From: Narthecium ossifragum
Taxonomy: Eukaryota > Streptophyta > Magnoliopsida > Dioscoreales > Nartheciaceae
Assembly: GCA_963920575.1 (NCBI GenBank)
Contig: OY986966.1
Span: forward strand, 19,291,656-19,355,655
Direction: 5' to 3'
Length of the DNA stretch: 64,000 nucleotides
Each line of letters begins with the position of its first letter. The first letter of the stretch is position 1. The notes under the pieces were generated by a model. The model made no database searches and was not told where the DNA came from. It saw only the letters and a program-made list of their open reading frames with translations. Of this stretch, positions 1,951 to 60,260 are shown one piece after another. The position numbers were made by a program, and so were the translations under genes.

Positions 1951-3717
1951 TGATGAGTGCATGAAATTGCACTCTGAACATGACTAAGAATAGCTTATTT
2001 TCGGAGTTTTCATAATTTATATAGATGATTTCGTCCGTATATGTTGCTTCACAAAGTTATTTGTATTATGCAGAAAATTGAAGCAAAAATGAGTCTTTAA
2101 TGCCAAAACTGTACCTTCTCAGAACTAACCAGATGATGTGTTATACATGGTTGGAAAGCTCTGGAAGTCTAGTTTCCGCGAGTTTTTATGGTTCATGATT
2201 TAGAGTTTTGTAGAGGAAGATATGCTATTTTTAGTATGAGAGGTGCAGGAGTAAGCGGCTACGGAAGAAGAAGATCGATCTGATCCCAAAGAAGAGCGAT
2301 ATGATCCCAAAGAAGATCGATTTGATCCCAAAGAAGATCGATCTATTTTTGTGCTTAGACGCTGGTAGAGAGTTGATAGAGGACCAATTATCAAAAGATC
2401 GATATGATCTTTAAAAGATCGATCTGAACCTGGGTGATCTGGAAGTGACTCAGTCTATCGAGAAAGAAGATCGATCCATTCCCAAAGAAGATCGATCTTA
2501 ATCGGGGCGACCCAGATTACGGAAAATGAGGAAAATTACAGTTTTGTCGACTGGTAGGAAACTATTCGGAAAATGTTCCCTGTAAGTCCAAATATTCTCC
2601 AATTTGAATACATGATAGAAAGCTCAGAGATCTACAACTTTTCTGTTGGACAGTTTGTGAGATTCTGGATGGTGTGATAGAAGATTTGAAGAATAGATGA
2701 AGTTACACAAGCTGGAAAACTGTTCTGTCGAACCTGAGAAGAATATTCGTCAAATATTTCTGATAACTCCGGGATCTGACAGAAGACTTCCTAATATACA
2801 ACTTTCGTGTTGAGCTACTTTCCAAATTCTGGATGGATTGGTTTGAGGATTAATTCAGGAAATCCGAGTTGCACTAGAAGTCCAAGTCAACTAAAACCCT
2901 AATTTCAGAATTCCCTTATATATATGGTTATTTAAATCCAAAATTTGGCTGTTCCCAAGGCGGTTTTCTATAGAGCTTTGGAGGGGAGAAAAACAAGAAG
3001 ATGAAGAAATCTCCATCCATGGCCGAGTAAACCGCGGACATGGCGGACGGATGATCTAGCGAGGATTAGGGTTTCTTGTTCATCATGGTTCATAGTTTTA
3101 ATCTTTATTGTTAAACTCTTTTCTATGTATTGAATCTTCAAGGATTATATCTATTGTTTACCTACTTTATCTCGTGAAATTTTTGCTATGTATTGCCGAT
3201 TGTGAGAGTTGGTATTGTGTATTCTTAGAGATATGGTAAGATAGAGTCAGGGCTATGTCCCGATGAACTTTTGCTATACGTTGCCTTTAGTGACAGCCGG
3301 TATGATATATTCTTAGGTTTGGGTAGAATGAAGTTAGAACTATAATAAGGAAGAATCAATCGTAGGAATAGACATATATATATTTTGTTAGACTCATAAT
3401 TCTATATCTCCCGGTTAAGGTGATTGGGATGTGAATCCCTTAGTTGAGTATTGAATGAACCGTTGCTAGAAGAAGAACCTAAGTCCGAGTGAAGGGATTC
3501 CTGACGCCTAGCCATCTTAACACATTGTTATCTCTAGTTAATCTTGAATTATCATTAAAGCCTTTGATCTAATTTAGTTAATTCTTAAGTTCTCGTTTGC
3601 CTTCAATTCATTGCTATTTTCATTTTGGATGTTTTTTGCTTGTCTCTCTGTGGGTTCGACCTCTCTTATGTTATGCTGCACCGTGATTGCTGTGCGAGAC
3701 ACATTTGAGCGATATCA
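1951..3717 (+). mobile_element. Solo LTR (TGATGAG...GATATCA family), TSD ctgtc
   Basis: The 1,767-bp unit begins tgatgagtgcatgaaatt and ends gagcgatatca. It is flanked by identical 5-bp copies ctgtc (1946-1950 and 3718-3722). It has TG..CA ends, no internal domain and no open frame of note. It matches the minus-strand LTR at 28588-30136 from first base to last. It carries a GATCGATC cluster at 2273-2498, a TATA-rich stretch near 2920, and near its 3' end a 'tctctgtgggttcgacctc' block shared by the whole family. It sits inside the Tekay LTR 757-19911. Confidence 0.9.
2273..2498. repeat. GATCGATC palindrome cluster in LTR U3
   Basis: Five copies of agatcgatct/c and two near-matches (gagcgatatgatc, gatcgatttgatc) are spaced roughly 20-70 bp, often followed by the word cccaaagaa. 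The cluster lies about 420 bp upstream of the likely TATA region (near 2920). Confidence 0.8.
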
Positions 3718-5687
3718 CTGTCACACAGGATCGATCATCTCCAGGGGGAATGATAGATCATTGTGAGGACCCGTACCTCTAACCTGGTTCGACCGCGTTG
3801 GTCGAGGGTCTGGTTCTGTTGGTTTTGGGCTTGGTTGGCCTTGCTTAACGATCTCTTTTGATCGTTGCGGCTCCGGGGGTAATCTGGTAAATTACCCTTG
3901 GCGGAGTTGGTTTCACACACGCGTTGTGCACACACGGCCATGTGGTGATGTATGTGTTTGATTAGATCATTAGGGGAATCCTAGACCGAAAGATCTTGAT
4001 TAGATCAAGGTTTGAGCTTATGGGATCAGATCTGGCCGATCGGATGGCCAGGATCTAATCTTAAGCCATTAGTACTTAAGCTCCACTTAATCCATCTCAT
4101 GTTAGGGATTCAGCCGCGATCGAGAGAGAGAGATCAAGAGAGAGCGGCGGCCCAATCTCGTGGAGAGAGAGGAGGAGAGGAGTCCGACGTCGGTGTCCAG
4201 CGGCCGGAGGAGAGGAAGCGGGCGCGCATCCCGTCCGATGACACCGACCGCGGCAAGCAGGACGACATCAACGGCAACGGTGCTCGACGACGGAGGAGTG
4301 GAACCAGAGGAGAGGGCTCGGCGACGACGATCGGCTAGAGAGGAGAAGATCTCGCGCCCAGAGGTAGGGTTTGATCTAATCTCTTGATTAGGCTCTACTA
4401 GACTAGATATAGGGCTGGCTTGATGCTTTGTCCTTGGATTTTCCTGGTTTCCCTCTTGATGTTCCAAGGATTTTGATGTATGTTGTTGGGTCCCTGAATT
4501 CGAGTTGAAGTCTTTTTCCTCCTTCTGCTGTTTTCCGTCGAGGTGCATGCTACCATATGTTTTCCGTGCTTCTCTGAGGTTTTTCATGGCTTCCGATGCC
4601 ATGTTTGTCTGGTTTGTTGATGCAAGCTCTGTTTTTCCCTCCCCTGCTGCCATGTCTGTTCTCACTTGGTGTTTCGATGCTTGCTGCCATGATCTGTTCT
4701 CACTTGGTGTTTCGATGCTTGCTGCCATGCCTTGCTAACCATTGGATCTATGGGTTGATCTATCTCTCTGCTTCTTCTTCGATTTATGTTCTATCTCCTC
4801 TCTTGATAGTTCCTTAACGATAATTCTTAGATCTAATATTCCTAATATGTTCTCCTATATGTAGTAGTGTTGGGTCTATGGCTTGATAGCATTTGGATGG
4901 GTTTGATAAGGTTTTAATCCAACTATTCTCGGATTTCCGCTGTTTTCTTCAAACCCTCATTCGCAGCCACTTTTTCGACGAGCTGCTCTTTATCCGTGTG
5001 GAATCTCGTGATGCTTCCTTCACCAAAGTTGCAGACCTTCGAGTCTACGTTTAGATGGCTCTCATTTCACATTTTTTCTGATTTCTGTACGATTTATGGT
5101 GAACTATCTATCAATCTGCGACGAAGCTGACTTTTGACGAGTTTTTGAGTTCCTCGTCGATTCGTGTTGGATTTCAGTCTCAGATTGACTTGATTCTTTG
5201 ATATGTCATCGAATGTCATGTTAGGATACTCGCTTGGTATCAAGGATGAAATTTTTATGAATGTTTTACGGGATTTCTAGTATATCTAGCTTTATGTCTT
5301 GTATAGGCGAACTATCCTAATTCCATGTTTTTCATGCCATATAAGCTTTATATAGTTCTTATGAGTATTTAGAATTATCGCATGATTTTCGACAAATTTC
5401 CGAGGGAATTCATGGAAGCTTTATGCTGAGATTTTATGCTTGTGTAACTCTAGGTCTCATTTATGCAAGTTGCTATTGTGAGGACCTGCCCCTCTACCCC
5501 TGTGGCTCGTTGTAGACCGCAAGGGCAATTTGGTAAATTGCGCCTTGTTGGATTGTTTCACACCCGCGTGTGCACACACTGCCCTTGTATGTGTTAGTGT
5601 TTATTTAGAATGGCTAGGTGGACCCGGGATCGAAAGATCCGGACTTGGGCTTGAGTTCTTGCCCAAGTTTAGCTTTCAGCACACAAA

Positions 5688-7823: not shown

Positions 7824-7835
7824 TGGTATCAGAGC
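7824..7835 (+). promoter_or_regulatory. Primer-binding site for initiator Met-tRNA
   Basis: The sequence tggtatcagagc begins 3 nt after the 5' LTR end. It is complementary to the 3' end of plant initiator methionine tRNA, the usual minus-strand primer of gypsy and copia elements. Confidence 0.92.
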
Positions 7836-15347: not shown

Positions 15348-16936
15348 GCTACCATTCTAAGCATGCTATAGGTATGCTACCGTTAGTGTTGGATTTCTAG
15401 TATTTCTAGTTATGTATGCTACCATTCTAAGCATGCTATGTTAGAGTAAATGCTTGTATGCTTATTCATGATATGTTTAATGTCAAATGCCCATAATATA
15501 TGCATAGCCCATGATATGTTCGATGGAATGCCAAGGAGCGTTGGCATGAGGTAAACGAGTATGAATTGCTATGTCTAGTATGATTTATGCATCTTGATAT
15601 CATGTATAAGCCTAGGGCCGGTGGTGTGCCCGTTTATATTTCTTTGTGGGAATGTTTATATTTCGCGGGGCAGTGGTGCCCTGTGAATTGGTTAGCTGGG
15701 GGTGTACCCCATTGTACAATTTTGGACTGACGGCGATGCATGTCGTCGTAATGCCGAAATTTGGATTGAAACGTGATATTACTGAAATAGCTTAGCTCTC
15801 TTTTACGTCTTATATGCTAAATTGGACATGCTTGATGAGATGTCATGTAGAGACACCTACTCCTAGTTGATTGTGTAGGCTCATGCATGTTGTAATGCAT
15901 TAGAAGCATTAAGGCTAGGTGGTAGGCGATGGTTTCTATCGCCGATCCGGGGTTCTCGGGTAGCCCGGATCTAGCCCTAGGACCGGGGCTTGGATAGTCG
16001 AGGATTAGGACGTGATTGTTATCAATGATCATGCTTGATATCATTTGAGGTTGTTGTTATAGTCGACTATGCACTATTCTTGTATTTGAGGTGTAAAGGT
16101 CGTGTCGGGTCTCCAAGGCCAAGCGCTAAGGATGGTTGTCGACGTCCCTGACATGTGTGTCCTCGTGAGAGATGGTATGACTGGGCAGGGTGGTACCTGG
16201 ACAGGAGCCCGCAGTCGTTGTTTCCTCTCGTCTGTTCTTGGGTGAGGGTGGGACCTGGACAGGAGCCCTCGGGAATCGACGGGGTTATGGGGCCCCTTGG
16301 CATCTCTTAGGCTTAGGCGGAGAACGACATAGTTGCAGTTTCCTTTCCTTTCTGTGATACGTAGAGTAGAACCCTACTGGGCATTGTTGCTCACCCTACC
16401 TGGGCTGCATCGGCGATGCAGTTCCTTCTTTCAGGTGATCTTCTAGAAGATGGCGCGATATTTCGAGGTGATCGAGGACTTGGAGCTTCGATGAGTTCAT
16501 CTACAGTTAATTTACAGTTTTAATCAGTGATGTATAAATTGATGTATAATCTGAAATATTCGAAAACAGGATTGTATGATTATTAATTTAATTGTATTGG
16601 AGAAATGTTGTAACATTCTTTAATGTAGACATTTGAGGAATGTAATGATTAATCATTTGTCCAAATTGTAATTTGTCAAATATCGAGGTTCAAATTGTAA
16701 AGTTGTACAATGTACAGGTTTCTTGTGTTATAATTATAAATGGGATTCTGCCGAAATTTCATTGTATAAATTTGAGGATTAAGTTGTTTAAATTCATAGC
16801 AGTTATATACTTGGGCGCCAATTGATGATGTAAACAGGTTTAGGTGGCTCACGCTTCGTTCTGGATGGGTTTTCTGGGTCGGGGCATGACAGATCATCCT
16901 CGTGATGGGAAGGTTCAGTCCTTGTCAAGCCAAAAG

Positions 16937-17128
16937 GGATCGATCTTCCTTCTAGGAGGATCGATCACCAAGCCAAAGGATCGATTTTCCCTCCAAGAAG
17001 ATCGATCACTTTCGCGACCAAGGATCTCGTCCATTCCTCCAAGCAAAAGATCGATCTTATCGATCATGCATGGGTCATACATGACGCCCCAAGAATCATC
17101 GATCCTTCCTTAGAAAGGATCGATCATG
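16937..17128. repeat. GATCGATC cluster of the split Tekay LTR, first half
   Basis: Six or so GATCGATC or GATCGATT words, each within a setting like aggatcgatcatt or agaagatcgatcac. The cluster belongs to the U3 of LTR 757-19911. Its other members are at 3728-3737 and 19557-19641. Confidence 0.8.
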
Positions 17129-18398: not shown

Positions 18399-18537
18399 GA
18401 ATAGTACCTCGCGGTCGATCCACGGATCAACTGCCAGACTCCACGGTCGACCGTCACGGTCTTCGCGGTCGATTCGTTGATCGATCGTGAACCTTCACTT
18501 CTCCACGGTCGACTGTGATATCGACCGCCAGCCTTGA
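18399..18537. repeat. CGGTCGATC inverted-repeat cassette
   Basis: Words cggtcgatcc, cggtcgaccgt, cggtcgattcgttgatcgat and cggtcgactgtgatatcgacc lie about 580 bp downstream of the TATA box. The same cassette occupies 37109-37262 in the related LTR. Confidence 0.75.
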
Positions 18538-19556
18538 ATAGGGTTTTTTCGTGGTTCTTTGATCGAATTTCTTTCATGAAAGATGGCCAATGATGTTAGG
18601 GATCATGTATGCTATTGTCAGTGGATTTTTTGTCGGGGTGGCTTCCCGTTGAGGGCTTTCTCTGCGAGCTGGCTGGCAGCTGGTGGTCTGACCGTTGCAG
18701 CAGTTCCTTGTTTACCTGTTCACCACCCCGGGCTCGCTGCGTGCCGAGTCCAGACCTTGTTTTATTATCATCACATATGTTGCATGTTTATCTGTTTCTC
18801 CTACACGTGTGTACATAGCATGCATTTTTGATTGTGCATTAGATGCATAAGGATAGGACGTGGGCGATGGGTTGATCGCCGATCCGAGGCTTTCGGGTAG
18901 CTCTAGGACCGTGGCGGGTAGCGTGGTCAAGGATCGGATGGTAGTAGTATTCAGAGGTCGTGTCGGCCTCGAGCCAGGTGCTGAGGTTGCATCCAGTGTC
19001 GTTGTTTCATCCTTGGGCAGGGGGTGTGCCTGGGCGGCAGAGACTTGTCCCGCCCAGCAGTGTCTTCTTCTTGCTGTACTAGGTGTTTTCGGGATGGGCC
19101 CAGTTCGTTAGGGTGACCATGGTTGGATACCTAGAGAAACTGGTAGGGTTATGGGATCCCGTAGCACACCTAGACCTAGCTTGGGGGTGACACAGTTGTG
19201 GTCCCTCCTTTCTGTGTGTCGTAGTGTAGAACCCTACTGAGCTTAGTGCTCACTCCTACCGGGCAGATGCAGGCGTTAGCTCTTCTTCAGTGGCCTCTAC
19301 CGGGTAGGTCTGTGGTGGCGCGGTGGTGTCTGGCTGTGGTTGAGGAGCGGTGATCATCCGTTTACCCTTTTTATTAGATAGCCTCCTACGGGAGTGTGAT
19401 GTATATGAATGTACCCTTTGAGGTTTTGAAATCTTTTATATTATATCTTTTGAGGTTGTTGATTATTGTTAATTACGGGTACTTGTGAAATGTTTAGGGA
19501 GACGAATAAGCTAGAGGGAACCCTCGCTATATGTTTAGCATCTTCTTGGCTCCAAA

Positions 19557-19641
19557 TGATCGATCCTTCCAGCGAGAAATGATCGATCATCACTAAATGA
19601 TCGATCCTTCTAGCAAGGAATGATCGATCATTTAGGTGCAG
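19557..19641. repeat. GATCGATC cluster of the split Tekay LTR, second half
   Basis: Four atgatcgatcc or atgatcgatcat words lie about 20 bp apart. They belong to the LTR 757-19911 interrupted at 17541. Confidence 0.8.
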
Positions 19642-28587: not shown

Positions 28588-30136
28588 TGATGTCGCTCAA
28601 ATGTGTCACACACAGCGGGCGCGGTGCAGTACAACATAAGAGAGGTCGAACCCATAAAGAGACAAGCAGGAAAGATCCCGAAACACAGATAATAATGTAT
28701 CGAAAACAATCAAGAGCGTAAAAGTTAAGAAAGTAGATCAAAGATGTAACGGTAAAATAAAAGTAACAAAGAAAATAAGGATTTGGTTAAGGCTAGGCAT
28801 CGGGAATCCCTTCACTCGGACTTAGGTTCTTCTTCTACCAACGGTTCATTCAATACTCAGTTAAGGGATTCACATCCCAATCACCTTAATCGGAAGATAT
28901 GAAACTATAAACCTAACAAAATATATAAATGTCTCTTCCTATGATTGATTCTTCCTTATTATAGTTCTAACTTCATACAACCCAAACCTAAGAATACATG
29001 ATACCGGCTCTCACTACAGGCAACGCGCAGCAAAAGTTCATCGGGACAAAGCCCTAACTCTATCTAACCGGATCTCTAAGAATACACAATACAAACTCTC
29101 ACAATCGGCAATGCATAGCAAAGATGTCACGAGATAAAGTATGTAAACAATAGATAAAACTATGGGATTATAAGATCAAGAAAGAAGCATGATTGGATTC
29201 ATAATATTAATCATCCACATAGAAATCTATAATCTGAAAATAATCTTTGAAGATCCAAAACATAGAAAAGAGTTTAACAATAAAGATTAAAACTATGAAC
29301 CATTGTTGGAGAAGAAGCCCTAGTCCTCGCTAGATCATCCGTCTGCCATCCCCGCGGATTACTCAGTCATGAATGGAGATGTCTTCATCTTCTTCCTTTA
29401 GAAAACGTCCAGAAAAGAGCCCCCAAAAACGTCCAAGAACTCCCCTTATATAAGGACATGAAACCCTAGCTTTTATTTCAGCCTTTGGTTTAAATCTGAT
29501 GGCTCGTATTTAGATCCGCCCGACAATGGATCGATCCTTTGAAAGTCAAGGATCGATCTTTCTCTTCTCTATTTCTCCGTACCTGGGTCACCCAAGTAGG
29601 ATCGATCCTTTGAAAGAAGCATGATCGATCCTTCTCAGTAGGATGGATCCTTCCATAGAGTAGGATGGATCCTTCTATAGGAGAAAGATCGATCCTTCTC
29701 CTCAACATTCTCGAGTGAAAGGAGGATCGATCCTTCTATGATCATCCGAAAAGTGTGTGTTTTGTCAGGCCTGTCTGCATAAAAGGATCGATCCTTGTAG
29801 GGAACATGATCGATCCATCTTTCCTGGGTATTTACTGTTTTGCCATCCAGACTGCGCTATTGGTACTAAAATTGCCGTAACTTCCTCCAGAAAACTTGGA
29901 ATCACGAACTGTAAAATTCTACAGAAACTAGACTTCAAGAGCTTTCCAACCATTTATGACACCTTATCTGGTTCGTTGTGAGAAGGTACAGTTTTGGCGC
30001 TAAAAATCCATCTTTGCTTCAATTTCATGCATAATACAAATAACTTTGTGAAGCAACATATACGGACGAAATCATCTATATTAAGCAAATAAGCTGCTCT
30101 TAGTCATGTTTAGAGTGCACTTTCATGCACTCATCA
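28588..30136 (-). mobile_element. Solo LTR (same family as 1951-3717), TSD gtcgc
   Basis: A 1,549-bp unit flanked by gtcgc at 28583-28587 and 30137-30141. Read on the minus strand it starts tgatgagtgcatgaaagtgc and ends gagcgacatca. It matches 1951-3717 along its length, including the cctgacgcc/ccgagtgaagggattc region. It carries a GATCGATC cluster at 29527-29818, upstream of a TATA-like cttatataag (about 29448, minus strand). Confidence 0.92.
29527..29818. repeat. GGATCGATCC cluster in U3 of the solo LTR
   Basis: About eight ggatcgatcctt-type words and two ggatggatcctt variants lie between 80 and 370 bp upstream of the minus-strand TATA-like box. The sister LTR at 1951 has the cluster in an AAGATCGATCT version, so the words changed in concert within each copy. 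Confidence 0.8.
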
Positions 30137-30754: not shown

Positions 30755-31905
30755 TGACAGTCCTGAAGGTCCAAAAGGGAGGGGGGGGGGGTGAATTAGA
30801 CCCTTTTCGAAAAACTAGATTAATGAAAAAATCAGATAGAGAAGATCTAAGACCTTAAATGCTTGTAAATGAGATGAAAACACAAGTCAAACAACATGCA
30901 AGAATAAATGAGAGAGAGGTTAGAGAGATTGCACCGATTTTATAGTGGTTCGACCCAACCCTTGGTCTACGTCCACTTCTCTCAAGGTCCTCCTTGAGGT
31001 TTCACTACTTGCAAATCATTACAAGCTTTTTCTCCAAGCTTTCGGGTGCTTGGTAACCTTACAATCACTCCCAACAACAGTTGGATGGCTCTCAGTGTAC
31101 TTCTTCACACTCGAAGAAGGTTTACAAAGGTTTAGGCTCAAGGGAAATGAATAGAAAATGTTTTCTAAAACTTGCACCAATGATCTCAGAAATATCAATA
31201 ATAGTTGTGGCAAGTTTACACAAGAAAACTACTTATATTTGGCCTTCAACTAGCTCAAAAATTAGCTCTAACGGCTTGTTTTTTACTCTACGCGTTGCTG
31301 GTGGTCAATCCATGCATCGTCAGCCACATCGATCGCCAGGTTCAAAACTTAGCCTTCTTGAGCCGTGATCGATCCACCCATTGACTGCCAGAGCAACCGT
31401 CAGCTACTGTTGTGAAAAATGCTTCCCAGGGTCGATGCTCCGATCGACCATCGCTTCTTCACTTGAGTCAACATTGTTCGCGGTCGATCCATGCATCGAC
31501 CGTCAGATCGTCCATGAGCCTATAACAATTAAAAAACAATTTCCCTCCAAGCCAACACTTAGCCAAAGTATATAAATCACAAACAAACTGTACGGTCGAC
31601 CGGTCCATCGACCGCCACATCGACCGTGAGGCTCTGTCAAGAAAATGGCTTCCCAGGGTCGATATCTTGATCGACCGCGAGCCAACAATTCATTTGGCCA
31701 AGTTTGGTGCTTCCACCGTGCAACCCCGCAGTCGATCCATGGATCGACCGTCGCATTCCCACGGTCGATCCATGCATCGACCGTCAGTACAATAATTTCT
31801 AAAATATTGAATTTAAGGTTTCCACTTAAAGGGGTAATAAATATTAAACATATATTTTATCATTTAATGTATATTGGCATCATCAAAACAATTTTAGGAT
31901 CAACA
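30755..31905 (-). mobile_element. 3' LTR of a SIRE/Maximus-like copia element
   Basis: Read on the minus strand it starts tgttgatcctaaaattg at 31905 and ends cttcaggactgtca at 30755, length 1,151 bp. A C-run before the end (gggggg at 30780 on the plus strand), the gtggttcgacccaaccc text and the adjoining polypurine tract are typical of SIRE-type copia LTRs. It inserted into the transposase N-terminus. An inverted-repeat cassette fills 31366-31785. Only this LTR and part of the internal region remain. Confidence 0.75.
31366..31785. repeat. CGGTCGATC inverted-repeat cassette inside the copia LTR
   Basis: Units include cggtcgaccggtccatcgac, gtcgatccatggatcgac and cggtcgatccatgcatcgac. The part 31592-31681 aligns base for base, without gaps, with 49173-49262 and 54056-54145 in gypsy LTRs, including the non-palindromic words ggctctgtc and tggc-tccca. 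Confidence 0.85.
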
Positions 31906-31920
31906 ATCTCTCCCTTTTTG
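31906..31920 (-). promoter_or_regulatory. Polypurine tract of the SIRE-like element
   Basis: The minus strand reads caaaaagggagagat directly before the LTR start at 31905. This is the plus-strand primer of SIRE-type elements. Confidence 0.75.
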
Positions 31921-32543
31921 ATTATGACAATCCTTTTAAATGTGATTATAAAATATTTTGGCTCTCCCTTAATCTATGCATCCATTTCTTTCAACGAATG
32001 TGTTCCAAAGTGAATTCTCAAGATGCACACAAGTCATATATCCCTAAAATGATATGAAAAGTTCCATTTAAGATATGATGACAAGATAACTTGGATTTTA
32101 GCATGTTCACTTCTATAAAACAAGAACATTTAAGCTTTCATGAAATGATTCATAAGAAAAGTGTGATCACCATTATAACTTAGTAACATCCATCATCTTT
32201 GCATTAAAAGATATCAAATAAGACAATCAAACAACATTCCAAAAAAAACTTTCATTCCAACAACTTTAATTACAGAGACTCTATCACAAAGATTTCATTC
32301 AAACACAAAGTTTTCATTCGAAAAATAAAGTTTTCCAAAGTGTACAAAGTACAAGAGTCAAAATAAGAAAATGAAGGGCATTTGCTTTTATCATCCATCA
32401 CAACGTTTTCTCCCCCTTTGGCATCATAAAAAAGAAACAAGGAATGAGCTTTAGGATCGATCAAGTGGAGTAGTGGGAGGAGTAGGTGGGAATTTGTCCT
32501 TGATATAGGTGAAGATGTCTTCAAGTTGCTTGGACACTTTCTC
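31921..32543. other. 3' untranslated part of the SIRE-like element
   Basis: AT-rich sequence between the polypurine tract and the ORF end on the minus strand. I see no pol domain (no GAG, IN, RT or RNase H of copia type). The element is therefore either a non-autonomous derivative or truncated before pol. Confidence 0.45.
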
Positions 32544-33470
32544 TTAATTCTCCTTGAACTCAGCTTTGATTTCATCAACATGTTGGGCTTGGCTTACTTC
32601 CATCCTTCCCAGTCTCGCTTCTAGCTCTTCAAGTCGTTGTGTCGTAGTGCGACGAGCGTGGCTATGGGAGGATTCACCTTGATGTGCTTGAATTCTAGAC
32701 TCTCCTTGCTCTTCCCCTGAGCTTTCCTCATCATGCTCTCCTTCATTTGCTTCTTCCTCATCACCACTAACATGGTCATGAACAATACATCCTAAGGATT
32801 GCCTGATTTTGAACATCCTCTTATAAGTGGATTTACTGAAGGGTTGAGCAAGAGGTCTTCTATCATAAATGGGAAGGTGGAGGGTAAGGGCTTGGAAGAT
32901 TTTGGTTAGGATTCCTCCAAAGAGTAGGGATTGCCTAGCCATAAGGTTAGGTATTTCTTTGATGATGATATAGCCTAAGTTTTGAGGCTTCTCCCTAACC
33001 ATGCAAGAAAGGATATAGGCATGAATAGGCTTCAAGTGATCATGGTGGCCAACCTTGGGAAATAAATTTGTTCCTAGGAAGTGGGCTAGCTCCCAATAAT
33101 TTTTATTTAGGTCATTTAATTCTATGGGGATTTTGTCGAAACGACTAGGTCTAAGTATGGCCCTTCTCCGTTGCGTATCCGTATCAAATTTTTGGAGATC
33201 CTCATATGAAGTAAAATAGGTGCACTCTCCTTGATTTGGTGCATTGAGTATCTCATTCAACCATTCAATTGTGATTTTGATTTCATTGCCATAAACATAA
33301 CTATTAATGGCTACATTTTCTTCATCATCAATTTCCTCAATAATATTGTAATAAAAATAGTGGACCATATCAGGATACATGAATTTTGGCAATTTTAGGA
33401 AATCCATCCATCCCATTTTTCTAAAAAATCTTTCAACAACAAATTCATGTCCTACATGCAGGGCCTGTTT
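32544..33470 (-). pseudogene. Plant-transposon-protein ORF in the SIRE-like element
   Basis: The frame reads FFRKMGWMDFLKLPKFMYPD, then SYVYGNEIKITIEWLNEILN, PSRFDKIPIELNDLNKNYWE, HAYILSCMVREKPQNLGYII and an acidic EEEANEGEHDEESSGEEQGE tail. It ends with a short coiled coil (TQRLEELEARLGRMEVSQA). This resembles the family annotated as putative plant transposon protein, carried by many non-autonomous LTR elements; its biochemical role is unknown. After the stop near 32544 the same protein seems to run on as KVSKQLEDIFTYIKDKFPPT. The 5' end is lost at 33458. The open frame formally reaches 33728, but that extra part is antisense to integrase and not part of this protein. Confidence 0.6.
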
Positions 33471-33557
33471 GGCTCGGAATGAATGGGCGGAATCCGGTGA
33501 ATCCAGTGAATCGGCGGATTCCGGATTCCGGATTCCGCCGTTTGGCTCGCCGGCGGA
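33459..33557. mobile_element. Truncated hAT-type MITE end
   Basis: The sequence cagggcctgtttggctcgg is a typical hAT-MITE terminus. It is followed by gaatccggtgaatcc and triplicated ggattcc words and a second tttggctcgcc. The other end is missing because gypsy integrase sequence starts at about 33558. Confidence 0.5.
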
Positions 33558-33833
33558 GTGTTGATGATGAGGAAGTATCACCCAGACCCGTCTCATGTCA
33601 TCAGGGTGGATGACATTGAGCTTGAGGCAGACGCGACTTTCGTTGAGCAGGCAGTTCAGGTACTTGACCGGAGGGATCAAGTCTTGCGGGGCAAGTCGAT
33701 TCCCTTGGTCAAAGTATTGTGGAGGCACATAGGCGTCGAGGAGATGACCTGGGAGCGCGAGGCACGCATGCGACAGGAGTATCCGTACTTGTTTCCTTCT
33801 CGAGGTAGCCTCTTGTCATGTCTTCTAGTGTAG
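33558..33833 (+). pseudogene. Tekay integrase tail (chromodomain-like), 5'-truncated
   Basis: The frame reads MRKYHPDPSHVIRVDDIELE, QVLDRRDQVLRGKSIPLVKV and EEMTWEREARMRQEYPYLFP, ending at 33833. It is very close to 11143-11398 and is followed by the same polypurine region and an LTR at 33903. It is the last 5% of a third Tekay copy; everything upstream is gone. Confidence 0.85.
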
Positions 33834-35006: not shown

Positions 35007-35230
35007 GGATCGATCCTTCCTTGCTAGAAGGATCGATCGGTCTTTGACATGAACGTGGATCGTTGAGAAGGATTGATCGGTCTCGTGGGACGGATCGATC
35101 AGACTCGGAGAAGGATCGATCGGTCTCTTGGTTGGATCGATCGTTCCCTTGGCTGGATCGATCGGTCTCCTTGGCTGGATCGATCGCTCTCTTGGCTGGA
35201 TCGATCGGTCTCCTTGGACGGATCGATCCT
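35007..35230. repeat. GATCGATCGGTCTC array upstream of the LTR TATA box
   Basis: Nine or so units of about 20-23 bp, with consensus ggctggatcgatcggtctc, sit directly upstream of tataaaa (35251). The unit has become a true tandem repeat here, unlike the looser clusters elsewhere. Confidence 0.88.
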
Positions 35231-35840: not shown

Positions 35841-37108
35841 TGGCAGAGAGAGGAAATTTATTTGTTTTGCTCGCGGGGCTTTGCATGTACGGTTTTCTTT
35901 ACTGTCTTAATACCTGGTACATACGTTTAAGCATGTTAGCCCTATAATAGGGCAGTGGTGAACCGGGGGAGTGATAGACTCCCGGGATGTTTAGAATAAG
36001 CGGGCGGGTAGCCCTACAGCTTTCCTTAGCCTTGCATGCCGACGTGCGCCAAGGGCTTTATCTGTGTTATCTGTGAGCTGTTGTTTGCGGGGCTGCTTCC
36101 CGATGCAGGTGTTGTGGTGGACTGCTGGCAGTTGGTGGTGGTACCACTGCAGCAGCTCCTTAGACCTTATTTACCTGTTCACCACCCCGGGCCGGCAGGG
36201 TGCCGTGCCCAGACCTTGTTTGATATATCATCACATACTGTTGCATGTTTACATGTATTATCCTGCGCATGTCATAACATGCATTGTGTTGTGCATTAGT
36301 TGCATCTGTGTAGGGCGTTGCCGATCCGGGGCTTTCGGGTAGTCCGGATCTAGCTCTAGGACCGTTGCAGGTAGCTTGGTCCAGGACTCGATTTGTAGTA
36401 TTCAATCGATATTGATGATAGGGTTAGTTTGACTTGAATACATGTTGTTCGATGTTTAGAGGTTGTGTCGACTTCAAGTTGTATCCGAAGTGTAGTCGGA
36501 GTCCGGTGTTCCTAAACTCTTGGGAGGAGGAGTGGGTTCCCAGCGGTGTCCTGGCCCACCAAACAGTGTTCTGCGTCTTGTTGAGAGTATGCAGTGTTTT
36601 GGGCCTGCGTTCACGGACTTCCGATAGGGTTATGGGACCCTTGTATACACCTAGGGTAAACTTGGAGGCGACACTGTTGTGTTCCCTCCCTTGTGAGTGT
36701 CGTAGTATAGTGTCCCTACTGAGCTTAGTGCTCACTCCTACCCGGGCTGCGTTTTGCAAGTGCTGGCGCTAGCTCTTCTTCGGTCGCCCTTACCGGGCCG
36801 GTGTTTGGTGACGTGGCGGCGTCTGGCGGTGCTTGAGAGGTGGCGATCTTCCAGTCTTTACCTTTTTCTTATAGATAGTCTCCTACGGGAGTGATAAATG
36901 TATAATTTGCCTGTTTGAGGATTGTATATAAATATCCAGTTTCAGTCTTTGGGTTGTAATATTTGTATAATACAAGATGGTTATGATTTGCTAGGGTAAC
37001 CACTACGATTAGAGGGAAACCTCGTCAAATTTTTCGCAGTAAGTTAGGTTCCGGTTTGTGTCGCCCTGCCCGGTTGGGCCTACGCGGGTCGGGGCGCGAC
37101 AAGTACCT

Positions 37109-37262
37109 CACGGTCGATCCACGGATCCACCGCTAGACTCCACGGTCGACCTTCGCAGTCGACTGTGAGCCTTAAAATCACCATAATAACACCTCATAGT
37201 TGATCCGTTGATCGACTGTCAACCTTCACTTCTCCACGGTCGACCGTGACATCGACCGCCAG
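37109..37262. repeat. CGGTCGATC inverted-repeat cassette
   Basis: Words cggtcgatccacggatcc, cggtcgaccttcgcagtcga, and ccacggtcgaccgtgacatc align in order with 18399-18537. Confidence 0.75.
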
Positions 37263-48200: not shown

Positions 48201-48279
48201 GGCTCTTGCGCAGGGATCCTAGTGTTCAAATCTAAGAAATCTAAAATGCCAGCATTAGAAAATATTTTCCTTGAATTAG

Positions 48280-50908
48280 TGTGAGGACCCGTACCTCCAA
48301 CCTGGTCCAACCGCGTTAGGTCGAGGGTCTGGGTTTGTGGTTTGGCTCGGTTGGCCTTGGGATGCGATCGGTTGATCGCATCGCAGCTTTTGACCCCAGT
48401 GGCATTTTGGTAATATGCTCCCTGGTGGTCAGTTTCACACCCGCGTTGCACACATGACCTTTGATTGATGTATGTGTTTGATTAGAATCTTTAGGGCGCG
48501 TCCGATCGGAAGATCGGAGCTCGATCGGGAGAGATCGAATCGGACGGCTGTGATGGATTCCAGCTTTCTATTTAAACCCCTTTCCTTTCTCTCTCTCTCT
48601 CTCTCTTTTCTTCTTCTCCTGCGTTCTTTCTTTTCTCTCTCTCTTGCGGCCGGCTGTGCTAGGGCATTCGGAGGCGTGGCTTCGAGGAGCGGATTCCGGC
48701 GATCGGAGTTGGGGGATGCGTGGAGGAGCTGCCATATCTCTTCAAGTAGGTGTTTCTACCTCGATCTTTGGATCGGGTTCTCCTAGGATAGGTTTATTGT
48801 ATTTTCGCTGTAGGAGTACTTATTAGAATGCTGTGTAATTCTTTGTGCATGTGTTATAGATGCTTTGAAGTATTCCTACCTCGCGATTTCCGTATTGTAA
48901 TGGCTGGTTTTCCGTATTATCGCCGTTTCGTCGGTTTTCGCCATTTTGACCTAGATAGGAGATTTATCCGACAAAAATATGATTTCTTTGCACCGTTGGT
49001 TTCCCCATCATCTTTTATGCATGCTTGCAAAGTTTCAATGATTTCCAACTTGATTTGATCCGTAAAATACAAGAAATTGGATTTCCGGCACTGTTCTGAT
49101 GAACTGTGCCTAAGACCCGACGGTCGATCGGTGGATCGACCGTCAAGTGTTGATTCGCATTTTCTGGGCCTGACGGTCGACCGTCGGATAGTCCGTCGCA
49201 TCGACCGTCAGGCTCTGTCGGGATTTTGGCCTCCCACGGTCGATGGGTCGATCGACCGTGGGTTCTCTCTCCTTTTCATCCCGCCTCACGGTCGACCGTC
49301 GGATCGACCGTCGCATCGTCCGTGAGGCTCTGTCTCGTTTTGGGCTCCCGACGGTCAATGGGCCAATCGACCGTCGCCCATGTGGCTTTCCTCGTTTTGG
49401 CCTCACGGTCGATCGGTGGATCGACCGTGACATCGCCCGTGGTCTCACGGTCGATCCGGGGATCGACCGTGACATCGTCCGTGGGCCCTTAGACAGTGTT
49501 TTCTGGTCTTTCTCAAATGGCTTTCAATCGTGATTGATCTTTAAACATATTGGGAAGTTTTTAAATGGATTTTGTAGTGTTTTCAAAGGATTTCTATCGA
49601 GTTTAAGGATCGATTCGAGTATTTCTCGTTTTAGACAAATCTATGGTTTTGATTGCATTTAATACATGTTTGATAGTAGTTAAATGCTTCTTTGATTGTC
49701 TAACCATTAGTTAACCATGAGTGCTAGCTAATGAGGAATTGTGGAACCTTAGCCTCTTGTCGGCGAGTGCCGAGGGCTATTGTCTAAATGTGGCCAGTTA
49801 CCTGCGGGGTAACTGTGGAACCTTAGTCTGTCAGGTGCAAGAGTGCACTGAAGACTATTGTATATCTGTGTTGAATGCTTTGCTCAGATGTTTGTTGGTT
49901 AGCATAGTTTATTCTGTATTTGAGGCCTTTGCTATGCTTACCCTTTGGCTAGCTGTAAGCTATGCCTAGCCCTGTATGATTAGTGACATCTTGTTGCATG
50001 CTTATGTCTTGTTATCTGTGCCTGAGCATTGCATGCATCTTGATTGCTTTAGAGGCATCTGAGGTTATGTGGGTGATGGGTTGATCGCCGATCCGAGGCT
50101 CTCGGGTAGTTCGGATCTAGCCATTAGGACCGCGGCTGGGTAGCCAGGATTAGGGTGTGATTGTATAATCAGATCTCATGTGTTGAGGATGCACGCTTGT
50201 TGACTCTGATCATTGTTTGAGGTTTAGAGGTCGTGTTGGTCTCCCAAGACCAAATGCTAAGGATGGTTGCCGGTGCCCCTGACTTGGTCCCCAGGCAGTG
50301 GCTTCCTGCTGGGTAAGGGTGATCCTACTGGTTCTGGTTCTCTGTTTCCTCCCAGCGTGTTTGGAGAATATGTCCCAGCGTGGTCGGTTGAGAAGAGTAG
50401 GAGCCTTGGGGTAGTCGGCAGGGGTTGGGGTTGTGGAACCCCGTGGCATTCCTTAGACTTGTGCGGGGAGACAACACTATTGTTGTTTTCCTCCCTTCAG
50501 TGTGCCGTAGAGTAGAACCCTACTGAGCTTATCGCTTACACCTACCCGGGCTGCGTGTGCAGGTGCAGGCGCCAGTCTCCTTCAGTAGAGCCGGCGGATC
50601 AGCTTTGGTGGCGCGACTACATTCAGAGGTGCTTGAGGTTGCTGGAGGATCGATTGTTGTACTTTTGGCAGATTTTGTAATTATGTACATTTCGAGGACT
50701 ATTGAGACTAATGTATAATATTCTTTTATTGAAAGATCTTGTAATAGTACAACTGATGTTATATGAATTGAATATCTGTTTACCTCTGGATTGTAAATTG
50801 TTTAAGTTTTTATATAATTCCGCTTTGTATCGCGCCACTTGGAGATGAATAGTGTAGGTTTCCCCTCACGCCTCGGCCCGGATGGGTTTTCTGGGTCGGG
50901 GTGTGACA
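48280..50908 (+). mobile_element. Solo Tekay-type LTR, TSD attag
   Basis: A 2,629-bp LTR with attag at 48275-48279 and 50909-50913, beginning tgtgaggacccgtacctc and ending gggtcggggtgtgaca. TATA-like tatttaaa at 48569, a (ct)n run at 48590-48612, a donor-like aagtaggtgtttctacc at 48744, and a large inverted-repeat cassette at 49117-49482. It interrupts the antisense plant-mobile-domain gene. Close sister of 53024-55619. Confidence 0.94.
49117..49482. repeat. CGGTCGATC inverted-repeat cassette
   Basis: Seven or more units in 366 bp. The best hairpin is 49233-49262, arms cccacggtcgat and atcgaccgtggg (12 bp, perfect) with a 6-nt loop. Others are cggtcgatc-ggtg-gatcgaccg at about 49120 and 49407. 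Units are separated by words such as ggctctgtc and ttttgg. The cassette lies about 550-910 bp after the TATA-like box, in the presumed transcribed region. Confidence 0.9.
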
Positions 50909-51353
50909 ATTAGGATGATTAATCATCCTACTGTGCCACTCAATGAATTTATCATCGGTCAAAGGCCATGGTGTAATTGGATTCTTGGAGGAAAGGGTCG
51001 ATAAGTTGAGCTCTTGGGATAAAGGTAGATCACAAGAAAGTGGAAAAGAATTTACAACAACCTTAAGGCATAAGATTAGAAACAAAATAAGGTCCAAGAG
51101 AAAAAGACCTGGAAGTCGAATCACCAGTTCTGACCAAATATGTCCCCCTTACCTCATCTGATTTCAGAAGCTCATTGAAATCTGCATAGGTCCTGCTGAC
51201 TTCCTTATGAATGACCTCATCGGCTTCGATTTCACGAACCGTGATGAAGAACAGACTGCTTGCCGGTGAAGAAGAGGAAGAAGTCTCCGACGTCACAGAT
51301 GTTTTTAAATGAAAGGAAGGAAGAAGACTCAAGTGCCACAACAATGAGAGCAT

Positions 51354-52555: not shown

Positions 52556-53023
52556 TGTCAGCACCATAAAATAGACTTATCATGTTAAAAAAACATTAAT
52601 CATAAGATTTGAGGCCTTAACACCATCTACCACTTCAAAAGACACTTATGCCCCCTCCTACAACAGCCTACAAAAACCTACGCCCTCCTCTCACTCCTCC
52701 TCCTCCTCCTCTCTCCTTACTGCATCATCGTCACCCATCCGCCTCATCTTGCTCCTCCCCGACCTCTCTCCTTCAAAAGCCATGAACGCCCTCCTCTCAC
52801 TCCTCAACCTCTCCTTCAAACGCCATGAACGTGCCTTAGAAGCTATTTTAAGCAGGGGCCTTGTCGATGGATCTGCATCACCCTAAGAAGAATGGCTGCG
52901 ATGGCGGCGGCTAGGAGAACGACGCAGCAGTCAAGAAGATGCGACCGTCACCAACTATCATCCGATCACTGAAGCTTGTCCACGATCTAATAAATGCTGA
53001 CAAGAAACCTCATCGACAATGCC
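52556..53023 (+). other. Probable start of the Tat 3' LTR or flanking debris
   Basis: It begins tgtcagcaccataaaata, AT-rich to 52620, then pyrimidine-rich (tcctcctcctcctcctctc) with two aacgccctcctctcactcctc words, then a coding-like stretch IIRSLKLVHDLINADKKPHR up to the LTR at 53024. That stretch continues after the LTR at 55625. The LTR end cannot be located. Confidence 0.4.
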
Positions 53024-55619
53024 TGTGAGGGCCCGTCCCTCTGACCTGGTTCGACCGCGTGGGTCGAGAGCCGATTTCCTTTTGGTTTGGTTCCGCGTCG
53101 GGCACGATCGGGCGATCGTGTGGCGGTTTGGACCCTAGGGGCATTTTGGTAAATATGCCCCCTTGTGGTCGGTTTCACACCCGCGTTGCACCCACGGCCT
53201 TGGATTGATGTATGTGGTTGTTTAGAATGGTTAGGTGGACCCGGGATCGGAAGATCCCAGCTCGGGCGTGCTGAAGCTTGCTTCTGGGCAGCTTGCGGCC
53301 CTTGTGCGATCGATCGGGCTCGTGAGAGAGTCGGCGGGCTTTTGACCCGTTGGATCGGTCCGGCCCGTTAGTGGCCTGTTAGTGGGGACAGTTGGAGCAG
53401 TTGGCTCCAACTCACCTTTTTCCCTCTCTTCTCCTTCTTCCTCCCGTTCCTTCTTCTCTTCTCCTCCTGCCAACGTTCCTTCTCCTCTCTTCTCCCCTTC
53501 TCCTCCGACTGGGCTAGAGCTTGGAGGGCTGAGCATTGCGGAGCGGATCTTCACGGCACGACTGGCTGGACGCGTGGAGAAGCTTCACTGCTTGCCCAGG
53601 TAGGTGTTTCTACCTCGATCCTTGGATCGGGTTCTACTAGGTTAGGTTGTATGTGTTTTTGCTGTGGAATACCTAGTAGAATGCTTGTAGCTCCTTGCAT
53701 ATGTGGTGTGCTTCTTTCCCTTGTGTTCTTACACCGTGAATCCAGGTTTTTGCCAGTCGTTTTCCGTATTGTCGAAGCTTCGTCGATTTTTGGCCATTTT
53801 CCACCTAGATAGGAGATTTCGAGATTTAACCATCAAAAATGGGATTTCTTTACATCGTTGGATTCCCCATAGTTAAATATACTTGCCTACAAAGTTTCAT
53901 TGTTTTCAAACATGTTTTGATCCTTCAAAACCGAGAAATAGGATTTCTGGCATATTGCGTCGTGAGCTCGACGGTCGATCGGTGCATCGACCGTCAGGCT
54001 CGACGGTCGATCGATGTATCGACCGTCAGGCTTTAATATGCTTACTCTGGGCCTGACGGTCGACCATCGGATCGACCGTCGCATCGTCCGTCAGGCTCTG
54101 TTGGGATTTTGGCCTCCCACGGTCGATGGGTCGATCGACCGTGGGTCCTCTCTCTTTTTCATCCCGCCTCACGGTCGACCGTCGGAGCGACCGTCGCATC
54201 GTCCGTGAGGCTCTGTCTCGTTTTGGGCTCTCGACGGTCGATGGGTTGATCGACCGTCGCCCATGTGGGTTTCCTTGCTTTGGCGTCACGGTCGACCGTG
54301 GCATCGACCATGACATCGTCCGTGGTCTCACGGTCGATCCCCGGATCGACCGTGACATCGTCCGTGACCACTTGGACTTGGTTTTCCTGGTTCTTCTTGG
54401 ATGGATTTGATTTGGGATTAGTATCTAAACATGTTGGGAAGCATGTAGGGGGATTTGATGAGGTTTTCAAAGGATTTTCATCGGGTTTGAGAATCGGTTT
54501 AAATAGCTCTCTTTTTGGGTAAATCTATGGCTTACTTGCATTTGATACATGTGTGATTGTAGTTAAATGCTTAATGATGTGCTTAACCATTAGCTAGCTA
54601 TGAGTGCTAGCTAATGAGAAATTGTGGAACCTTAGCCCTTGCCGGCGAGTGCCGAGGGCTATTGTATATCTGCTGGACTCTTATAACTGATGATGTGGCA
54701 TGTAGAGTCATCTAGGATAGATGTTTGCCTAAGCTCATGCATTGTATGCATTAGAAGCATTTGAGGTTAGGCGGGCGATGGTTTGGGTCGCCGATCCGAG
54801 TCTCTCGGGTAGCTCGGATCTAGCCTTAGGGCCGTGGCTGGGTAGTCAGGAATAGGGTGTGATCTTGTATCATTTGAATCTATGTGATTGAGGATTGCGA
54901 TAGTTGGCTTCAATCAGTGTTGGAGGTTTAGAGGTCGTGTTGTCTTCCAAAGCCAAGTGCTAAGAATGGATGTTGATGCGTTCCCGACGTGTTTCCCCAA
55001 AGCTTGGTATTCCAGTTTGGGTAAGGGTGATCCTGCTTGTTACTGTTCCTTGGCCTCCTGGTAACTTGTTCAGGAGAGAGGTTTCATGACAAGAGCCCTT
55101 GGGACATCAACTGGGTTATGGGACTCGTGGCATCCGTTAGACTTAGGCTGGGAGGCAACACTGTTGTTGTTTTCCTCCTTTCAGTGTGCCGCAGAGTAGA
55201 ACCCTACTGAGCTTATCGCTCATTCCTACCCGGGCTGTGTTTGCAGGTGCAGGCGGTAGTTCTTCGTCAGTAGAGCCGGCGGGATCTGCCTTTGGCGGCG
55301 CGAGTACCTCCAGAGGCGTCTGAGGTTTTGTTGGAGGATATGACTGTTGTACCCTTTTTATATATATATATATGCATGTTGTAAACCCTTGAGGAGTTTT
55401 GGAAATCTTGAATCATATCTGTACCTTGAAGGATTTTTTGTATCAAATATTAAACAGTACAACTTGATGTTATATGAATTAATTATCTGTTTGCCTCTGG
55501 ATTATAAATTGTTCAAATTTATCCGTCTTTCCGCATTTGTATCGCGCCAATTGAAGATGAATAGTGATAGGAACCCTCACGCCTCGGTCCGGATGGGTTT
55601 TCTGGGTCGGGGTGTGACA
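53024..55619 (+). mobile_element. Solo Tekay-type LTR, TSD atgcc
   Basis: A 2,596-bp LTR flanked by atgcc at 53019-53023 and 55620-55624; starts tgtgagggcccgtccctc and ends gggtcggggtgtgaca. Pyrimidine leader 53410-53510, donor-like caggtaggtgtttctacc at 53599, inverted-repeat cassette 53970-54362 and the conserved block at 55206. Close sister of 48280-50908, with the same order of cassette units. Confidence 0.94.
53970..54362. repeat. CGGTCGATC inverted-repeat cassette
   Basis: The same unit order as 49117-49482, with one extra unit at the start (cggtcgatcgatgtatcgac). The 12-bp-arm hairpin recurs at 54116-54145. Confidence 0.9.
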
Positions 55620-55624
55620 ATGCC

Positions 55625-58800: not shown

Positions 58801-60260
58801 CTCGACCTACCACGATCGGACCGGGTTGGAGGAACGGGTCCTCACAAAAGAGAAGAGAAAATTGAAAACTGAAAACAGAAGAGAGAAAAGAGAAAACTGA
58901 AACAGACCTGCAAGCAACCGTCGTCGTCGCCGCTCATCACCCCATTCACAAGGACGACTTCATCAAGAGTCCAAGCGGCTGTCGGAATCCACATTGAAAA
59001 GAGAAAAGTGAAAAGAGAAGAGAAAACTGAAAAGTAAAAAGAGAAGAGAGAAAAGAGAAAACTGAAATAGACCTACGAGCAACCGCCGTCATCGTCGCCT
59101 ATCGCCGCTCATCACCCCATTCACATGGAAGACTTCATCAAGAGTCCAAGCGGCTGTCGGAATCCATATTGAAAAGAGAAAAGAGAAAAGAGAAGAGAAA
59201 ATTGAAAACTGAAAAGAGAAGAGAGAAAAGAGAAAACTGAAACAGACCTGCAAGCAGCCGTCGTCATCGCCGCTTATCGCCGCTCATCACCCCATTCAGG
59301 AGGACGACTTCATCAAGAGTCCAAGCGGCTATCGGAATCCACATTGAAAAGAGAAAAGAGAAAAGAAAAGAGAAAACTGAAAACTGAAAACTGAAAAGAG
59401 AAGAGAGAAAAGAGAAAATTGAAACAGACCTGCAAGCAGCCGCCGTCATCGCCGCCTTTCGCCGCTCATCACCCCATTCACGAGGGCGACTTCATCAAGA
59501 GTCCAAGCGGCTATCGGAATCCACATTGAAAAGAGAAAAGAGAAAAGAGAAGAGAAAACTGAAAACTGAAAAGAAAATAGAGAAAAGAGAAAACTGAAAT
59601 AGACCTACAAGTAGCCGCCGCCTATCGCCGCTCATCACCCCATTCACGAGGACGACTTTATCAAGAGTCCAAGCGGCTGTCGGAATCTACATTGAAAAGG
59701 GAAAAGAGAAAAGAGAAGAGAAAACTGAAAACTGAAACCGAAAAGAGAAGAGAGAAAAGAGAAAACTGAAACAGACCTGCAAGCAGCCGCTATAGTCACC
59801 TCTTATCGTCGCTCATCACCTCATTCACGAGGACGACTTCATCAAGACTCCAAGCGGCTGTCAGAATCCACATTAAAAAGAGAAAAGAGAAAAGAGATAA
59901 GAAAAGAGAAAACTGAAAATTGGAAACTGAAAAGAGAAGAGAGAAAAGAAAAAACTGAAAAGAGAAAATTGAATCAAACCTGCAAGCAGCCGCCGTCGTC
60001 GCCGCTCATCACCCCATTCACGAGGATGACTTCATCAAGAGTCCAAGTGGAGCAGCAGGAAGCGGCTGTCGGAACCCGCATTGAAAAGAGAAAAGAGAAA
60101 AGAGAAAACTGAAAACTGAAAACTGGAACAGACCTGCAGGCAGCCACCATCGTCGTCGCCTATCACCGCTCATCACCCTATTCACGAGGATGACTTCATC
60201 AAGAGTCCGCATTGAAAGGCGAAAAGAGAATAGAGAAAACTGAAAACTGAAAAGAGAAAA
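55800..60260. repeat. ~175-bp GA-rich tandem array, interrupted by a solo LTR
   Basis: Each unit has a GC-rich half (accccattcacgaggac, agagtccaagcggctgtcgg, acctgcaagcagccgcc) and a GA-rich half (repeated gaaaagagaaaactg). The anchor accccattca occurs at 55961, 58939, 59114, 59289, 59471, 59637, 59818, 60011 and 60175. Spacings are 175, 175, 182, 166, 181, 193 and 164 bp; the first pair is 170 bp apart after removing the 2,808-bp LTR insertion. So there are nine units. The minus strand of each unit has a short frame PIAAWTLDEVVLVNGVMS, but no continuous ORF spans the array. Confidence 0.93.
56046..58848 (-). mobile_element. Solo Tekay-type LTR in the tandem array, TSD aaaga
   Basis: A 2,803-bp LTR in minus orientation, flanked by aaaga at 56041-56045 and 58849-58853. 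Read on the minus strand it starts tgtgaggacccgttcctc and ends gggtcggggcgtgaca. The GC-rich leader at 58190-58450 gives proline- and arginine-rich frames that are compositional. No GATCGATC cluster. A small ggaaaccaacactgct triplicate lies at 56678-56730. Confidence 0.94.

What the first reader, a model, noticed from the sequence alone, without database searches (positions are those of the whole stretch)
31592..31681. The same 90-nt inverted-repeat cassette in a copia LTR and two gypsy LTRs
31592-31681 lies in a SIRE-like copia LTR; 49173-49262 and 54056-54145 lie in Tekay gypsy LTRs. All three segments are exactly 90 nt. By my hand count 68 of 90 positions agree, without gaps, between the first two. 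Agreement includes non-palindromic words (ggctctgtc, tggc.tccca) as well as the CGGTCGATC/GATCGACCG arms. Copia and gypsy LTRs share no ancestry at this level, so the cassette must have moved between families, been captured independently from one source, or been selected in both. It is inverted relative to transcription in the copia LTR, which near-palindromic units would tolerate.
Basis: partly seen in the sequence, partly recalled or inferred. Interest (0 to 1): 0.8.

Follow-up and report, generated by a model that had tools for sequence, protein, structure and literature searches.

The report
Palindrome array shared by unrelated retrotransposons
Two unrelated classes of plant jumping gene, copia and gypsy, carry recognisably the same palindrome-rich stretch in their control regions, which points to an old transfer of a control-region module between them.

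Summary
31592-31681 matches 49173-49262 at 68 of 90 ungapped positions and 54056-54145 at 67 of 90. None of 3 x 1000 null arrays reached 68. Outside the palindrome arms 26 of 37 positions agree.

The 90 nt are one unit of an array of roughly 370-490 nt. The copia host is Sirevirus-like (copia gag and RT, ENV-like ORF, iMet-type PBS), and its array resembles the known Sirevirus 'repeated motif' (PMC2829016; Vitis version CGGTCGACCG). The gypsy copies are solo LTRs. Copia-gypsy LTR homology was found only in the arrays.

A second, gag-only copia LTR family (copII) bridges them: its whole array aligns with the gypsy array beyond the nulls, with the same 115-nt unit spacing. The unit was found in 30 of 30 copia and 30 of 30 gypsy loci, but loci were chosen by array similarity. 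A tree of 118 units separates copia from gypsy (92/95): one old transfer, probably Sirevirus to gypsy, then inheritance.

Orientation relative to transcription is opposite in the two hosts. Function is inferred. My searches showed no report of such an array in a gypsy LTR.

The parts
30764..31905 (-). Copia (Sirevirus-like) LTR, 3' LTR of a minus-strand element
   Evidence: TG...CA ends and polypurine tract at 31906-31925 read; 29 other genome loci align to it
31300..31790 (.). Palindrome array of the copia LTR
   Evidence: arm matches; profile hits; CpG obs/exp 1.19; RNA fold z -7.4
31592..31681 (+). Unit named in the finding (antisense to copia transcription)
   Evidence: 68/90 and 67/90 to the gypsy units
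31365..31454 (+). Second, weaker unit in the copia LTR
   Evidence: 59/90 to 31592 and 56/90 to 49173; 59.7 bits at 31367-31452
32544..33815 (-). ENV-like ORF of the copia element
   Evidence: PF20167, 73.5 bits against a cut-off of 45
48280..50908 (+). Gypsy solo LTR gyp1, target-site duplication ATTAG at 48275-48279 and 50909-50913
   Evidence: read; genome copies aligned
49117..49487 (.). Palindrome array of gyp1
   Evidence: CpG obs/exp 1.45; RNA fold z -8.4
49173..49262 (+). gyp1 unit 1
   Evidence: 68/90 to 31592
49288..49377 (+). gyp1 unit 2, 115 nt after unit 1
   Evidence: 74/90 to unit 1, 62/90 to 31592
53024..55619 (+). Gypsy solo LTR gyp2, target-site duplication ATGCC at 53019-53023 and 55620-55624
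   Evidence: read
53971..54367 (.). Palindrome array of gyp2
54056..54145 (+). gyp2 unit 1
   Evidence: 67/90 to 31592, 85/90 to 49173
54171..54260 (+). gyp2 unit 2, 115 nt after unit 1
   Evidence: 64/90 to 31592

Best explanation
The segment is part of a palindrome array of the Sirevirus 'repeated motif' kind (CGGTCGA/TCGACCG arms, CpG-rich). Shown: the arrays of gypsy families gyp1/gyp2 are homologous, spacers included, to arrays of two copia LTR families, and no other part of the LTRs matched. Shown on the tree: units split by host, with no sign of repeated exchange. Inferred: one old transfer carried a stretch of array between LTRs, probably from a Sirevirus-type element of the copII kind into an ancestor of gyp1/gyp2. 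Because the array is reversed relative to transcription, plain copying between two co-packaged sense RNAs is unlikely; DNA repair synthesis or a strand switch started on palindrome arms, which can pair in either orientation, fits better. Inferred function: a hairpin-forming, CpG-rich cis-regulatory array as proposed for Sireviruses; in gyp1 it lies downstream of the likely promoter and so would be transcribed.
For: Unit match beyond nulls. Whole copII and gypsy arrays align at 178-214, with 0 of 300 arms-in-place nulls reaching the score in each of nine pairs. Unit spacing 115 nt in gypsy and in five of six copII loci. No copia-gypsy LTR match outside the arrays. Tree split copia/gypsy 92/95, midpoint on the copI stem so that copII lies with gypsy. 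Palindromes also upstream of the ENV-like ORF in copy L031, as published for Sireviruses. A 27-position non-palindromic pattern has 251 genome matches, its reversal 0.
Against: Direction is weak: 90 columns, many unresolved forks, copies decayed to different degrees (LTR pairs 89.7% copI, 94.6% copII, 98.0 and 98.9% gypsy). Another gypsy-type LTR (g3, 18409-18531) also has the palindromes, without the unit, and its 3' flank aligns with that of gyp1/gyp2, so palindromes may be older in this gypsy group than the shared units. copI against gypsy as whole arrays is weaker: permuted nulls reached the score in 1-6 of 300, arms-in-place nulls in 0 of 300 in five pairs and 1 in the sixth. Loci were chosen by array similarity. 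No breakpoint or empty site was found; transfer route and function are inferred.
Confidence: 0.6

Rival explanations
1. The transfer went from gypsy to Sirevirus: gypsy LTRs evolved the units and a copia ancestor acquired them beside or in place of its own palindromes.
For: The tree is unrooted and its copia/gypsy split fits either direction. A further gypsy-type LTR, g3, has palindromes at a comparable place. Gypsy units are well kept (85/90 between gyp1 and gyp2).
Against: Palindrome arrays are described as a general Sirevirus feature and here also occur upstream of the ENV-like ORF. The midpoint root puts copII with gypsy and copI outside. The gypsy LTR that ends at 7823 gave no arm cluster.
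Confidence: 0.2
2. Both hosts took the unit independently from a third source, such as a host sequence or another repeat.
For: Not excluded: only the best 40 candidates per genome search were scored and 100 of 251 pattern places were listed.
Against: Five places with unusual spellings of the pattern were fetched and all five lie in copI or gypsy LTRs. The two profile hits outside copI and gypsy led to another LTR family, copII.
Confidence: 0.1
3. Convergence: similar palindromes were selected in both LTRs as protein-binding sites or hairpins, and the spacers agree by chance.
For: Similar CGG-CCG palindromes are reported from distant Sireviruses with little other homology. g3 shares arms with the others but its spacers are at or near null level.
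Against: 26 of 37 non-arm positions agree; nulls that keep the arms in place fall short; unit spacing is the same.
Confidence: 0.07
4. A gypsy LTR fragment is nested in this one copia LTR.
For: None beyond the shared segment itself.
Against: Copia loci elsewhere carry the unit inside the same LTR, and no gypsy text flanks it.
Confidence: 0.01

Closest known systems
Sirevirus repeated motif (RM), Bousios et al. 2010, PMC2829016 (passages and section 9 read)
   Same: Palindromes with a CGG-CCG core clustered in the LTR, CpG-rich, also upstream of the ENV gene; the Vitis motif CGGTCGACCG is the core word here
   Different: The paper calls it Sirevirus-specific among the copia elements compared; here a homologous array also sits in gypsy LTRs, reversed relative to transcription
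Maize Sirevirus LTR palindromes as small-RNA hotspots (Bousios et al. 2016, not held; seen through passages of PMC10760457 and PMC5311732)
   Same: Palindrome-rich LTR region with strong predicted RNA structure
   Different: No small-RNA data here; PMC10760457 section 10 says maize Ty3 elements generally lack such a peak
Palindrome shared by Copia and Helitron structured regions in maize (PMC10760457 section 10)
   Same: One palindromic motif in two transposon superfamilies
   Different: There a short motif; here an array with spacers, between copia and gypsy
Template-switch chimeras of LTR retrotransposons (Sabot and Schulman 2007, PMC1950507, abstract read)
   Same: Sequence passing between two elements
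   Different: Those are fusions of two parent elements; here only an LTR array, in opposite orientation

Membership tests
Sirevirus (copI host) | Copia-type coding region | tested here: met
   Copy L031: RVT_2 162.7 bits; Retrotran_gag_2 53.2 bits in one ORF, 26.1 (below cut-off 27) in another. An RT tree within copia was not made.
Sirevirus (copI host) | ENV-like ORF in the ENV-bearing branch | tested here: met
   PF20167 73.5 bits in the window; 26.2 bits, below cut-off 45, in L031. That PF20167 marks Sirevirus ENV is recalled, not from a call.
Sirevirus (copI host) | Multiple polypurine tracts and conserved PPT/LTR junction | tested here: inconclusive
   One polypurine tract read beside the LTR; multiplicity not examined
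Sirevirus repeated motif (array in the copia LTR) | Palindromes with CGG-CCG core in the LTR, CpG-rich | tested here: met
   CGGTCGA/TCGACCG arms; CpG obs/exp 1.19 against 0.44 at 30764-31299
Sirevirus repeated motif (array in the copia LTR) | Cluster upstream of the TATA box | tested here: inconclusive
   TATA-like words near LTR positions 332, 668 and 962; the first lies inside the array, the other two beyond it (corrected for 4 extra bases in that script). Which is used is unknown.
Sirevirus repeated motif (array in the copia LTR) | Further copies upstream of ENV | tested here: met
   L031 about 3040-3390
Sirevirus repeated motif (array in the copia LTR) | At least eight copies per element | tested here: inconclusive
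   10 exact half-sites in the copI LTR; whole palindromes not counted
Sirevirus repeated motif (array in the gypsy LTR) | Host is a Sirevirus | tested here: not met
   LTR belongs with a gypsy-type LTR group
Ty3/gypsy (gyp1, gyp2) | Gypsy-type RT in the same element | tested here: inconclusive
   Indirect: 3' LTR part is 64% like the LTR ending at 7823, followed by a PBS at 7824 and an ORF with RVT_1 and RNase H. The internal region of a gyp1 copy could not be fetched.
Tekay chromovirus (gyp1, gyp2) | Chromodomain; RT in the Tekay clade | tested here: inconclusive
Three decayed ORF pieces before two 3' LTRs gave no Pfam match up to E 1; RT not seen.

The most novel reading that the evidence does not exclude
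A palindromic LTR control array is a portable module that crossed between copia and gypsy in inverted orientation. Copia RNA (array in U3 at its 3' end) and gypsy RNA (array in its leader) would then carry partly complementary copies, so small RNAs from one superfamily could silence or regulate the other.
Probability: 0.15. Interest if true: 0.8.

Novelty: new variant of a known kind. Interest (0 to 1): 0.52.

Why it matters
LTR control regions are usually treated as private to a family. A homologous array in copia and gypsy LTRs would show that control modules can cross one of the deepest divides among plant LTR retrotransposons, in a case with many copies to compare. It also links a known small-RNA target (Sirevirus palindromes) to a second superfamily, so cross-family silencing becomes testable.

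Tried and rejected
Rejected: nested gypsy fragment; chance match of palindrome arms; repeated recent exchange.

Set aside as evidence: higher conservation of the array among 32 gypsy LTRs, because 28 were chosen by array search, 2 by the array pattern and 2 are the window's. In 27 copia LTRs the array is not more conserved than the rest.

Rows dropped: one search made 168 units (model coverage of at least 84 positions; L001, L031 and L032 left out as duplicates). One search used the 124 of at least 50 bits and had two very long branches; one search used the 118 of at least 58 bits with a known family. still held L031, which overlaps L004 and L014, so its counts include a few units twice. Mean ungapped identities are blurred by units out of register and were not used for direction.

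Led nowhere: literature search for the 8-mer; Pfam on decayed gypsy ORFs; literature searches. Not done: gypsy copies chosen by their flank, gypsy internal region, full census of hosts, because the genome service stayed busy.

Full report
WHAT WAS CHECKED. Among the 25 best placements listed per query, those outside these arrays score 40-43. None of 1000 nulls of each of three kinds reached 68 (maxima 65, 67, 58). Outside the palindrome arms 26 of 37 positions agree.

THE UNIT IS PART OF AN ARRAY. Further units lie at 31365, 49288 and 54171, and TRF reports a 115-nt period in both gypsy LTRs. The arrays span about 31300-31790, 49117-49487 and 53971-54367. CpG obs/exp is 1.19 in the copia array against 0.44 at 30764-31299, and 1.45 in the gyp1 array against 1.08 upstream and 0.62 downstream. 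The gyp1 array (plus strand) and the copia array (minus strand) fold more strongly as RNA than their shuffles (z -8.4 and -7.4).

THE COPIA HOST (copI). The LTR is 30764-31905, read on the minus strand, with a polypurine tract at 31906-31925 and an ORF at 32544-33815 matching PF20167. A genome copy, L031, has copia gag and RVT_2, an iMet-type PBS, and a second palindrome cluster upstream of its ENV-like ORF. Bousios et al. 2010 (PMC2829016; passages and section 9 read) describe LTR palindromes of this kind in Sireviruses, with extra copies upstream of ENV; their Vitis motif is CGGTCGACCG. TATA-like words lie near LTR positions 332 (inside the array), 668 and 962 (beyond it); which is used is unknown, so 'upstream of the promoter' is an inference.

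THE GYPSY HOST. 48280-50908 (gyp1) and 53024-55619 (gyp2) are solo LTRs with 5-nt duplications ATTAG and ATGCC. Of three genome copies looked at, two (L033, L041) have the PBS beside the LTR. Two LTR pairs are 98.9% and 98.0% identical. The 3' part is 64% like the LTR that ends at 7823, whose element has a PBS at 7824 and an RVT_1 ORF. In gyp1 the array lies at LTR positions about 838-1208, downstream of a TATA-like word near position 290, so it is probably transcribed; I saw no such word in the 5' part of gyp2. The name Tekay was not confirmed.

COPIES IN THE GENOME. The searches scored only 40 of 2916, 3368 and 2838 first candidates. Of 30 copia loci (one is the window's own), 30 hold a segment matching the copia unit at 62-90 of 90, and matching 49173-49262 at 57-68. 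Of 30 gypsy loci (one is the window's own), 30 hold a gypsy unit matching the copia unit at 62-71; in L040 the best match, 67, is from a neighbouring copII element and its gypsy unit has 64. Both sets were chosen by array similarity, so these are not rates of presence. Of 132 profile hits of at least 30 bits, 67 were in copia and 62 in gypsy LTRs in the same orientation as in the window, one copia hit was reversed (not followed up), and two lay elsewhere (it counts a few units twice because L031 overlaps L004 and L014). A 27-position pattern from the mostly non-palindromic middle has 251 genome matches, its reversal 0; 100 places were listed, and the 24 on C1 are 11 copia-like and 13 gypsy-like in spelling (my count). 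Five places with unusual spellings were fetched; all five lie in copI or gypsy LTRs.

A BRIDGING FAMILY. The two hits elsewhere (L024, L040) led to a second copia LTR family, copII: 40 main genome hits, one the query itself and 39 at 88-91%. Element L067 has two LTRs (251-1300, 3073-4077), a PBS, and one ORF of 354 aa with copia gag and zinc knuckle; no other ORF exceeded 162 aa. The copI LTR aligns with a copII LTR (L069) in two pieces, 24-868 with 36-920 and 830-1142 with 673-1036, overlapping in the arrays. Two copII units are 115 nt apart in five of six loci fetched (L067 in both LTRs, L068, L070, L071 after allowing for a match starting at model position 3, L072) and 116 in L069, as in gypsy. 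Whole copII and gypsy arrays align at 178-214; arms-in-place nulls average 120-153 and 0 of 300 reached the score in each of nine pairs, permuted nulls once in one pair. copI with copII: none of 300 in any of six pairs. copI with gypsy is weaker: permuted nulls reached it in 1-6 of 300, arms-in-place nulls once in one of six pairs. g3 (18401-18545) was at or near null level against all eight arrays tried. Outside the arrays no copia-gypsy LTR match was found at E up to 0.01.

HISTORY. A tree of 118 units (90 columns; 168 units before filters) separates copI unit 1, copI unit 2, copII, gypsy unit 1 and gypsy unit 2 with the fewest possible changes, four. The copia/gypsy branch has support 92/95, just short of the tool's star. 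Stems are copII 0.070, gypsy 0.114, copI 0.149, with the midpoint on the copI stem. So units have followed their hosts since one old event, and copII lies closest to gypsy, which favours Sirevirus to gypsy. This is weak: few columns, uneven decay, and palindromes already in g3, whose 3' flank aligns with that of gyp1/gyp2.

MECHANISM. Shown: homology found only in the array, opposite orientation relative to transcription, one split on the tree. Inferred: the inversion speaks against simple template switching between two sense RNAs; Sabot and Schulman 2007 (PMC1950507, abstract read) propose template switching for fused elements. Palindrome arms can pair in both orientations and could allow repair synthesis or a strand switch. 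Function is inferred from Sireviruses: regulatory palindromes and small-RNA hotspots (PMC10760457 and PMC5311732, passages read; Bousios 2016 itself not held).

NOVELTY. PMC2829016 calls the motif Sirevirus-specific against other copia elements. PMC10760457, section 10, says maize Ty3 elements generally lack an obvious peak of such structure and notes one palindrome in both Copia and Helitron regions. In my searches I recognised no paper on a Sirevirus-type array in a gypsy LTR; they cover open-licence papers only, and most of the papers listed were seen as listings.

Noticed in passing
L067 251-4077 (within G000:C8:20719100-20723700): copII: a non-autonomous copia element with LTRs of about 1 kb, PBS and a gag ORF but no pol found; other hit pairs about 2.8 kb apart (C6, C1) suggest more such copies.
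   Followed up: partly
window 18409-18531 and 37108-37261: A further gypsy-type LTR family (g3) has CGGTCGATC-type palindromes in its LTR, with spacers unlike the shared unit.
   Followed up: partly
window 35070-35228, 29600-29699, 19554-19631, 16926-17009: Short tandem repeats built on GATCGATC words in other repeats of the window, so this palindromic word is common here.
   Followed up: no
window 58927-60047: Tandem array with 175-nt period, 6.3 copies, rich in GAAAAGA.
   Followed up: no
window 48600-49790 against 53452-54672: Between the two gypsy LTRs the array is better kept (331/371) than its flanks (617/800); selection, homogenisation or choice of copies could explain it.
   Followed up: partly
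copia loci: One profile hit of at least 30 bits lies in a copia LTR in the opposite orientation.
   Followed up: no
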